In this document: one piece after another, positions 49,989 to 50,567 of the stretch
Layout: every line of letters begins with the position of its first letter
Numbering within the stretch: position 1 is the stretch's first letter
From: Desulfatibacillum sp.
GTDB lineage: Bacteria > Desulfobacterota > Desulfobacteria > Desulfobacterales > Desulfatibacillaceae
NCBI GenBank assembly: GCA_016342355.1
Contig: JAEINP010000011.1
Span: forward strand, 1-64,000
Direction: 5' to 3'
DNA: 64,000 nt
Made by a program: the position numbers and the translations under genes
Notes under the pieces: model-generated
What the model was told of the DNA's origin: nothing
Seen by the model: the letters and a program-made list of their open reading frames with translations, nothing else
The model's database searches: none

Positions 49989-50015
49989 TAAAGTTTTTCC
50001 ATGAAAAGCCGAAAA
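49989..50015 (+). promoter_or_regulatory. Sigma-28 (FliA-type) promoter upstream of the GEMM riboswitch
   Basis: TAAAGTTT (49989-49996), exactly 11 bases, GCCGAAAA (50008-50015): 15 of 16 positions of the sigma-28 consensus. It lies about 95 bases before the riboswitch and 195 before the ATG at 50211, and nothing else is encoded between. Confidence 0.75.
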
Positions 50016-50111
50016 ATACTTAAGACATAACCAATGGATCTTTGACAACAAGCGAGGAATACACTCGGAAAGCTCCTTTTTGAACAGCGCCGTCATGCTG
50101 TTTTTAGTTCT

Positions 50112-50181
50112 CATTGCCAAACCTGTTGCAAAACAGGGACGGAAAGCCACGGGTCCGCGCCTGCGGATAGCCGGGTTACCT
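50112..50181 (+). promoter_or_regulatory. GEMM-I (cyclic-di-GMP class I) riboswitch
   Basis: The conserved core reads GCCAAACC, a hairpin CCTGTT-GCAA-AACAGG with a GNRA tetraloop, GGACGGAAAGCCACGGGTC, a second stem CCGC/GCGG, then GATAGCC and GGGTTACC. All GEMM-I landmarks, including tetraloop receptor and binding-site A residues, are in order. By eye, the base at the position equivalent to G20 of the Vibrio Vc2 RNA is G, which favours cyclic-di-GMP over cyclic-GMP-AMP. A small hairpin GCAGGT/ACCTGC lies between the aptamer and the AAAGGGG ribosome binding site and may be the expression platform. Confidence 0.85.
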
Positions 50182-50210
50182 GCAGGTGCAACCTGCTGAA
50201 AGGGGACATC

Positions 50211-50567
50211 ATGAAGAAAATGGTAGTTTTGATCACAATTATTTTTGTCGTAATAGGGTGTGTGCCGACAATGGCCCAAATGGTGGAACTGGGTGACTCC
50301 GAATTGGAATTGATCACCGGCCAGGCTTCGAGTATCGGTGTCCCCCAAACCTTTGCAGGCGTGGACACCAGCCAGGTTAGATACAACATCCAAATGGATT
50401 CCCTGGACATGGATACCCTTGCCCAAGGTCTCCAAGGTTCGGAATTTGAAATGGCCAGGACCATCATCACCATCGATTCCATTTCCACCCATTCCATGTT
50501 CGGACAAGTGGAAGCCAGGGGTATCACGGTGGATATGGAAGCCGGCACCACAGTGCGCTTTTTTTAA
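50211..50567 (+). CDS. Small exported protein with ELxxITGQA motif
   Basis: A 118-aa protein. A signal peptide (KKMVVLITIIFVVIGCVPTMA) ends near residue 22. The mature start MVELGDSELELITGQASS matches the L-x-D-S-E-L-x2-I-T-G-Q-A pattern seen at the start of mature parts of many small exported proteobacterial proteins of unknown function. The rest is acidic, threonine- and serine-rich and probably beta-structured. AAAGGGG precedes the ATG. Control by a sigma-28 promoter and a cyclic-di-GMP riboswitch points to a role at the cell surface in motility or attachment. This is inference from regulation only. Confidence 0.75.
   Translation: MKKMVVLITIIFVVIGCVPTMAQMVELGDSELELITGQASSIGVPQTFAGVDTSQVRYNIQMDSLDMDTLAQGLQGSEFEMARTIITIDSISTHSMFGQVEARGITVDMEAGTTVRFF

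What the first reader, a model, noticed from the sequence alone, without database searches (positions are those of the whole stretch)
49989..50567. Flagellar-sigma promoter plus cyclic-di-GMP riboswitch controlling one small exported protein
TAAAGTTT-N11-GCCGAAAA is followed by a full GEMM-I aptamer (GNRA tetraloop, receptor and binding-site bases) and then an exported 118-aa protein with a LxDSELxxITGQA motif. Joint sigma-28 and second-messenger control of a single gene suggests a surface factor tuned at the motile-sessile switch. I know of no described function for such proteins.
Basis: partly seen in the sequence, partly recalled or inferred. Interest (0 to 1): 0.8.

Follow-up and report, generated by a model that had tools for sequence, protein, structure and literature searches.

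The report
Riboswitch-controlled secreted surface-fibre protein gene
A sulfate-reducing bacterium controls a small secreted protein with a flagellar-type promoter, an anti-termination signal like that of ribosomal RNA genes and a sensor for the signal molecule cyclic-di-GMP, and related bacteria often keep the same gene beside a machine that probably builds surface fibres.

Summary
A c-di-GMP-I aptamer lies at 50106-50183 (Rfam 62.9 bits). A flagellar (sigma-28) promoter match lies at 49989-50015, is conserved in Desulfatibacillum alkenivorans and resembles an own flagellin promoter. The 118-aa exported ORF is conserved there at 66%.

The gene is not a one-off. Twenty-five riboswitch-led genes of this family, the window's included, were examined. 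In 12 of 12 loci from three other families of the order it lies beside a FilB-FilC-FilD-like cassette related to the Fap amyloid exporter. Seven loci of a family outside the order and Desulfatibacillum itself lack that linkage.

The same 11-mer occurs in an rRNA spacer of the order. Five loci carry four tandem aptamers.

Best reading: a small secreted component of a Fil/Fap-like surface-fibre system under sigma-28, Nus-factor and c-di-GMP control. Ligand binding, Nus binding, processing and secretion are inferred, not shown.

The parts
49989..50015 (+). sigma-28-type promoter, TAAAGTTT-N11-GCCGAAAA
   Evidence: shuffle p=0.003; conserved in D. alkenivorans; an own flagellin gene has TAAAGTTC-N11-TCCGATAC upstream
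50037..50047 (+). boxA-like antitermination site GATCTTTGACA, about 15 nt after the inferred transcription start
   Evidence: 13 of 16 leaders of the family against 0 of 80 controls; the same kind of sequence in an rRNA operon
50053..50067 (+). small hairpin after boxA (CGAG...CTCG)
   Evidence: fold; a hairpin at this place covaries in 10 distant relatives; weak in this genus
50073..50080 (+). candidate anti-Shine-Dalgarno CUCCUUUU, pairs with 50198-50205
   Evidence: minimum-energy fold; not conserved in the sister species
50106..50183 (+). c-di-GMP-I (GEMM-I) riboswitch aptamer
   Evidence: RF01051 62.9 bits; R1 86.9 bits
50182..50196 (+). hairpin between aptamer and ribosome-binding site, GCAGGT-GCA-ACCTGC
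   Evidence: sequence, fold; hairpins with other bases at this place in relatives, by eye
50200..50205 (+). Shine-Dalgarno AAGGGG, 5 nt before ATG
   Evidence: sequence; conserved
50211..50567 (+). ORF of 118 aa, small exported protein, distant relative of DUF6160/FilA-like substrates
50211..50276 (+). signal peptide, residues 1-22 (A22 invariant in the 16 aligned proteins)
   Evidence: alignment A2; cleavage site inferred; the VIGC before it weakly resembles a lipobox (E 0.99)
50289..50327 (+). leader-like motif LGDSELELITGQA, candidate recognition site of a periplasmic C39 peptidase
   Evidence: same place in 16 of 16 aligned proteins; processing inferred

Best explanation
The gene encodes a small secreted component, a minor subunit or modulator, of a Fil/Fap-like surface-fibre system and is controlled at three levels. 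(1) A sigma-28 promoter ties it to the flagellar programme (sequence and conservation shown; use inferred). (2) A boxA at the start of the RNA recruits the NusB/S10 complex so that RNA polymerase crosses the long untranslated leader without Rho termination (sequence, position and the identical rrn motif in a relative shown; Nus binding inferred). (3) One to four c-di-GMP-I aptamers set translation. An anti-Shine-Dalgarno stretch 5' of the aptamer and the Shine-Dalgarno 3' of it are placed to close the folded aptamer, which would make it an OFF switch with high c-di-GMP lowering synthesis (folding only; direction about 60% likely). The protein leaves by Sec. The segment LxDxELxxITGQA, which resembles the leader read by C39 peptidases, is cut by the FilB-like periplasmic C39 peptidase. 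The rest crosses the outer membrane through the FilC (FapF-like) or FilD (FadL-like) barrels (guilt by association; inferred).
For: Aptamer. Conservation in the sister genome. Riboswitch-led paralogue in both genomes. All 13 places with E up to 1.6e-6 of the 5-protein HMM in 291 genomes have GEMM aptamers or cores upstream. FilB, FilC and FilD relatives in 12 of 12 loci from three other families of the order, plus G028 and G054; their identity. The own genome keeps the cassette with DUF6160-type genes on contig C21, and the 16-protein HMM reaches those proteins at E about 1e-5. boxA. Hairpin covariation. In five loci the large Fil substrate gene also has a c-di-GMP-I aptamer (34-79 bits). FapD, a periplasmic C39 peptidase, is essential for FapC secretion and its target is unclear (PMC5557850, passages). 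Folding for the OFF switch.
Against: In Desulfatibacillum neither the window gene, its sister nor the own-genome paralogue is linked to the Fil cassette, and 0 of 7 loci of family f102, outside the order, show it in 20-kb stretches. The window protein scores only 15.9 bits for DUF6160 (cut-off 27). Own-genome FilB/C/D matches are far below the NCBIfam cut-offs (177 vs 475, 167 vs 630, 329 vs 970). Three single-aptamer leaders (G183, G153, G205) lack boxA and any clear sigma-28 site. Linker:Shine-Dalgarno duplexes are mostly not significant against shuffles one by one (9 arrays, p 0.046-0.53). The window's CUCCUUUU is not kept in the sister. In three f102 arrays CCTCCT precedes the second of three aptamers, not the last, and in the D. 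alkenivorans paralogue the stronger linker is that of the first of two aptamers. The structure model was too poor to use (pLDDT 48.8).
Confidence: 0.55

Rival explanations
1. Same architecture but an ON switch: without ligand the 3' end of the aptamer pairs with the Shine-Dalgarno as an extension of the 3' hairpin; c-di-GMP needs those bases (C92), frees the site and raises synthesis, as expected of a biofilm fibre gene.
For: In the minimum-energy fold of the sister leader the aptamer's GGUU and CCU pair with the GACC and AGG of the Shine-Dalgarno region; unconstrained pairing of the Shine-Dalgarno to that side in G001w is 0.75 (only its constrained half had an off-by-one P3 register).
Against: Holding the aptamer folded does not free the Shine-Dalgarno in most leaders: pairing with the linker rises in 13 of 16 (in the own paralogue and G205 by 0.03 or less) and is unchanged in G025, G183 and G153; the clearest freeing is G001_par with a 24-nt linker, 0.46 to 0.66, which reverses with 60 nt.
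Confidence: 0.35
2. The protein has nothing to do with fibres: it is a small free periplasmic or surface protein, and its neighbourhood with FilBCD in other families is historical.
For: Unlinked in Desulfatibacillum and in 7 of 7 f102 loci; not a DUF6160 member by the curated cut-off.
Against: 12 of 12 linkage in three other families of the order, the shared N-terminal motif with the cassette's large substrates and the riboswitch before the large substrate gene in five loci.
Confidence: 0.25
3. TCTTTGACA is not boxA but the -35 box (TTGACA) of a sigma-70 promoter.
For: TTGACA is the textbook -35 hexamer (recalled).
Against: No hexamer 16-18 nt downstream matches TATAAT at more than 3 of 6 positions in any of 22 boxA-bearing leaders. 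The conserved part begins upstream of TTGACA, a covarying hairpin follows in many, and the same 11-mer sits in an rRNA spacer.
Confidence: 0.07
4. The sigma-28 match is chance and transcription starts elsewhere.
For: The motif is no commoner in the genome than its reversed control; 10 of 16 genes of the family score under 29.
Against: Conserved as TAAAGTTC-N11-GCCGAAAG in the sister, as TAAAGRTT-N12-TCCGATG in both paralogues and as TAAAGGTT-N11-GCCGATAA in G054.
Confidence: 0.15

Closest known systems
c-di-GMP-I (GEMM-I) riboswitches, single and tandem (RF01051; PMC9481103)
   Same: Aptamer sequence and fold; tandem arrays known (347 doublets, 12 triplets in PMC9481103; passages read)
   Different: Led by boxA; arrays of four, which the passages read of PMC9481103 and PMC12452182 do not report for this class (literature search)
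rrn boxA / Nus-factor antitermination; [quoted passage not shown]
   Same: GYTCTTTGACA resembles the gamma-proteobacterial consensus GYTCTTTAANA (passages); the same 11-mer in an rRNA spacer of the order
   Different: Placed ahead of riboswitch arrays; the word riboswitch has 0 occurrences in that paper's main text
Acinetobacter Fil putative pilus system and Pseudomonas Fap functional amyloid (NCBIfam FilA-D, FapD, FapF; PMC5557850, PMC3792158, passages)
   Same: C39 peptidase, FapF-like and FadL-like outer-membrane proteins, exported substrates
   Different: All scores far below the curated cut-offs; substrates differ from FapB/C; c-di-GMP riboswitch control. The link of Fil to Acinetobacter is recalled
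DUF6160 (PF19657)
   Same: Signal peptide followed by a DxxLxxITGQA-type motif; 15 of 16 aligned proteins match at E up to 0.1, best 1e-8
   Different: Window protein under the cut-off; the only paper found with the name is about a CRISPR system (listing)
Bdellovibrio merRNA and FliA-controlled attack-phase genes (PMC3627812)
   Same: A c-di-GMP riboswitch and a FliA (sigma-28) regulon active in the motile phase (passages)
   Different: merRNA has no conserved downstream ORF and is not marked as FliA-driven in the table seen; here a protein gene follows

Membership tests
c-di-GMP-I riboswitch | Covariance model score over the gathering threshold | tested here: met
   62.9 vs 35 bits
c-di-GMP-I riboswitch | Ligand-contact bases G20, A47, C92 (recalled numbering) | tested here: met
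   Read by me from the alignments
c-di-GMP-I riboswitch | Binds c-di-GMP | not testable with these tools
   needs in-line probing
sigma-28 promoter | TAAAGTTT-N11-GCCGATAA (recalled E. coli consensus) | tested here: met
   15 of 16 positions; shuffle p=0.003; kept in the sister
sigma-28 promoter | FliA-dependent start at the predicted place | not testable with these tools
   flagellin genes present; fliA itself was not searched for
rrn-type boxA | Sequence of the lineage's rrn boxA | tested here: met
   GTTCTTTGACA between tRNA and 23S in G294 (G294 is listed with 8% contamination); window GATCTTTGACA; a 16S leader of G294 has GATCTTTGAAAA. The own rrn operon was not seen: 16S was found in 1 of 13 genomes
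rrn-type boxA | NusB/S10 binding and antitermination | not testable with these tools
   needs binding and readthrough assays
DUF6160 (PF19657) | Pfam gathering score 27 bits | tested here: not met
   15.9 bits, E 0.016; the G175 relative has 31 bits
Fil/Fap system | C39 peptidase, FilC/FapF-like and FilD/FadL-like genes in the genome | tested here: met
   own contig C21
Fil/Fap system | NCBIfam cut-offs for FilB, FilC, FilD, FapD, FapF | tested here: not met
   own genome 177 vs 475, 167 vs 630, 329 vs 970, 118 vs 330, 59 vs 700: Fil-like, not Fil in the strict sense
C39 (double-glycine-type) leader | LSxxELxxIxGG-like leader (recalled) | tested here: inconclusive
   MSDxELxxITGQ in relatives; weak match of the G175 protein to a bacteriocin-like peptide family, E 0.0068; GQ or AQ instead of GG

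The most novel reading that the evidence does not exclude
A new composite regulatory RNA: an rrn-type boxA, a covarying hairpin and (in 14 of the 22 boxA-bearing leaders) the block GGGUAAAAGAG, fused to one to four c-di-GMP riboswitches. It couples Nus-factor antitermination to second-messenger sensing in front of small substrates of a periplasmic-C39 fibre system, whose N-terminal ELxxITGQA segment is the still unknown recognition site of such periplasmic C39 peptidases.
Probability: 0.4. Interest if true: 0.78.

Novelty: new variant of a known kind. Interest (0 to 1): 0.62.

Why it matters
It would put rRNA-type antitermination, thought of mainly as a ribosome-synthesis device, in front of riboswitch arrays, and give a concrete reason: long untranslated sensor leaders need protection from Rho. 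It links c-di-GMP to a poorly studied fibre-export system in sulfate reducers, and it offers a testable answer to what periplasmic C39 peptidases of the FapD/FilB kind recognise, which PMC5557850 states is unclear (passage).

Tried and rejected
AlphaFold2 model of the window protein from 16 sequences: mean pLDDT 48.8, so no fold search was run. NCBIfam hits to riboflavin synthase and a beta-lactamase for the window protein: far below cut-offs, rejected. In a search of 301 bases the Rfam variant model c-di-GMP-I-GGC was kept over RF01051 for the window, but under its own cut-off (57.6 vs 59); A47 is A, so I keep the canonical type. A genome-wide excess of GYTCTTTGACA over its reversed control in five genomes (13/2, 18/2, 19/2, 25/9, 15/3) looked like support for boxA, but 26 of 30 matches looked at fall in open frames of at least 150 codons (a loose test: one of them is the leader of the window's orthologue), so it is not used. 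My first constrained folds had the P3 helix one base out of register; one search replaces them. A genome-contig scan for relatives gave only 2 loci. The 80 control riboswitch loci are each one strong hit from the capped list, one per genome, so they are biased to strong aptamers; one of them, L171, turned out to precede a protein with a similar motif. Four-aptamer counts first rested on a regular expression; overlap rules of cmscan and cmsearch hid some copies, which were then scored on sub-stretches. Of the nine later leaders, G638 was taken up because a boxA was seen before its aptamers were, so it is not an unbiased case for boxA. G336 (L227) has a riboswitch core near its hit but could not be oriented and was not followed.

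Full report
What is there. The window belongs to the same genus as Desulfatibacillum alkenivorans DSM 16219 (G001 is that genome by its matching contig). Reading the + strand, TAAAGTTT-N11-GCCGAAAA is at 49989-50015, GATCTTTGACA at 50037-50047, a c-di-GMP-I aptamer at 50106-50183, a short hairpin at 50182-50196, AAGGGG at 50200-50205 and a 118-codon ORF at 50211-50567. The aptamer is the only Rfam match of the window at gathering scores. The genome has four c-di-GMP-I matches: this one, one before a secreted lipase-like gene, and a tandem pair directly before a 116-aa paralogue of the window protein (30% identity, E 6.8e-7). D. alkenivorans keeps the orthologue (66%) with promoter, leader blocks, aptamer, hairpin and ribosome-binding site, and keeps the paralogue with its tandem aptamers.

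Family. A 5-protein HMM found relatives in 28 of 291 genomes of the order at E up to 0.01. All 13 places with E up to 1.6e-6 have riboswitch aptamers or cores upstream. Of the weaker places that I looked at, only those in G175 (9264), G294 (1134457), G260 and G054 do; not all of the weaker places were looked at. Large DUF6160-type proteins of 200-440 aa, and the 150-170 aa DUF6160-type proteins of the own-genome cluster, mostly lack a core. I took 16 riboswitch-led genes (the 13, G175, G294, G260) for study. A 16-protein HMM over 394 genomes of the phylum hit 19 genomes at E up to 0.001. Nine further riboswitch-led relatives were taken: seven from family f102 outside the order (G427, G638, G371, G569, G493, G473, G513) and two from the order (G028; and G054). 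The oriented hits in family f100 show no core.

Tandem arrays. Five loci of the order (G089, G025, G134, G209, G175) carry four aptamers; the copies hidden by overlap rules score 75.7-84.6 bits when searched alone. G125 has three cores. A secreted lipase gene in G047 also has four, each found by Rfam at 71.5-80.5 bits. The review PMC9481103 reports 347 doublets and 12 triplets for this class; in the passages read, quadruplets are named for glycine only. The triple array of Bacillus thuringiensis is PMC4759541 (listing only). PMC12452182 (passages) reports enrichment of tandem c-di-GMP riboswitches in Thermodesulfobacteriota.

boxA. [ACGT]TCTTTGA[CA]A ends 62-81 nt before the conserved CCAAACC of the first aptamer in 13 of 16 leaders, occurs in 0 of 80 control riboswitch loci of the same order within 350 nt, and is expected 0.007 times per 350 nt (Fisher p 1e-13, relatedness ignored). 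It is present in all 9 further leaders, at 55-160 nt. The three without it (G183, G153, G205) are single-aptamer genes of genus g97, whose members G125 and G169 have it. In an rRNA operon of G294 the 11-mer GTTCTTTGACA lies between a tRNA and the 23S gene, and a 16S leader of G294 has GATCTTTGAAAA. In 10 leaders the hairpin after boxA shows 6 of 13 pairs changed on both sides and 91.5% paired cells, against at most 59.2% for slid partners (the structure was drawn by me from these sequences). The block GGGTAAAAGAG follows it in 14 of the 22 boxA-bearing leaders; the Desulfatibacillum leaders, G294, G260, G028 and G054 lack it. No TATAAT-like hexamer follows at sigma-70 spacing in any of the 22 (at most 3 of 6). 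The listings show no paper whose title or abstract joins boxA and c-di-GMP riboswitches; the papers themselves were not all opened.

Promoter. Scores of at least 29 for a sigma-28-like site: 6 of 16 genes of the family, 5 of 80 controls. G054 has TAAAGGTT-N11-GCCGATAA, and three f102 species share TAATGTTT-N11-ATCGATAC (score 27). The other later leaders score 24-26. Flagellin genes exist, and one own flagellin gene has TAAAGTTC-N11-TCCGATAC upstream.

Neighbours. In 12 of 12 loci of the first set outside Desulfatibacillum (families f18, f35, f30), relatives of FilB, FilC and FilD lie within 10 kb; in 11 the riboswitch-led gene is downstream of filD on the same strand, and in G209 it is divergent on the filB side. 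The cassette is also present in G028 and G054, but in 0 of 7 f102 loci and not around the window, its sister or the own paralogue (the sister's paralogue was not checked). Pfam and NCBIfam identify the G175 genes as a C39 peptidase (FilB 1.4e-58, FapD 4e-30), FilC (7.9e-49; FapF 4.1e-13) and an OmpP1/FadL protein (FilD 1e-64), all under the NCBIfam cut-offs; the own genome has all three on contig C21. In five loci a large Fil substrate gene also follows a c-di-GMP-I aptamer (34.4-79.2 bits) without boxA in 350 nt. So the riboswitch link extends to the system itself.

How it may work. Transcription from a flagellar promoter, Nus-assisted passage through an untranslated leader, then translation set by c-di-GMP. 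In 9 of 9 arrays of the order outside Desulfatibacillum, the linker that pairs best with the Shine-Dalgarno is the one before the last aptamer, by eye because it reads CCTCC; single-locus p values are 0.046-0.53. In the D. alkenivorans paralogue it is the linker before the first aptamer, and in three f102 arrays CCTCCT stands before the second of three. Fixing the last aptamer in its bound fold raises linker pairing of the Shine-Dalgarno in 13 of 16 leaders (for example 0.77 to 0.97 in G175, 0.72 to 0.91 in the window with a 24-nt linker; by 0.03 or less in two) and leaves it unchanged in G025, G183 and G153. This favours an OFF switch, about 60 to 35 over ON. The protein's LxDxELxxITGQA segment sits at the same place in 16 of 16, just after the signal peptide, where a periplasmic C39 peptidase could read it; in Pseudomonas that peptidase (FapD) is needed for secretion and its target is unclear (PMC5557850, passages). 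Secretion, cleavage and fibre membership are inference.

Verdict. Known parts, unusual combination, conserved across two groups of the phylum: a new variant of a known kind.

Noticed in passing
L294 7438-7794 (-) (= L179, G047); L002 1501-1578; L015: Secreted lipase-like genes under c-di-GMP-I control: one aptamer in the own genome and in D. alkenivorans, four in tandem in G047; the own and G047 proteins are 34% identical, E 7e-46.
   Followed up: partly
L079 18378-18456, L092 18963-19041, L084 13674-13837 (all -); L083 5676-5737, L081 10472-10547 (+): Single c-di-GMP-I aptamers before large Fil substrate genes, without boxA.
   Followed up: partly
L188, L147, L192, L171 upstream of the aptamer: Strong sigma-28-like sites also precede other c-di-GMP-I riboswitches of the order.
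   Followed up: no
L171 (G090 C60), downstream of the aptamer: A control locus whose exported protein carries LDEKEFATVSGQ, like the TGQ motif, with a sigma-28-like site (score 32) but no boxA; perhaps a more distant relative.
   Followed up: no
L179 2917-2963 (+) and 3067-3113 (-): Two Acido-Lenti-1 RNA matches near the quadruple riboswitch.
   Followed up: no
G000 C125:107056-107080 (-), locus L006: The only other TAAAGTTT-N10-12-GCCGA match of the genome; not examined.
   Followed up: no
L285, L287, L288 leaders: The hairpin after boxA carries a second boxA-like CTCTTTGG or TTCTTTGA in its 5' arm or loop.
   Followed up: no
L273 1177-1246 (genome G169, Desulfoluna limicola by its contig): Group II intron match.
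   Followed up: no
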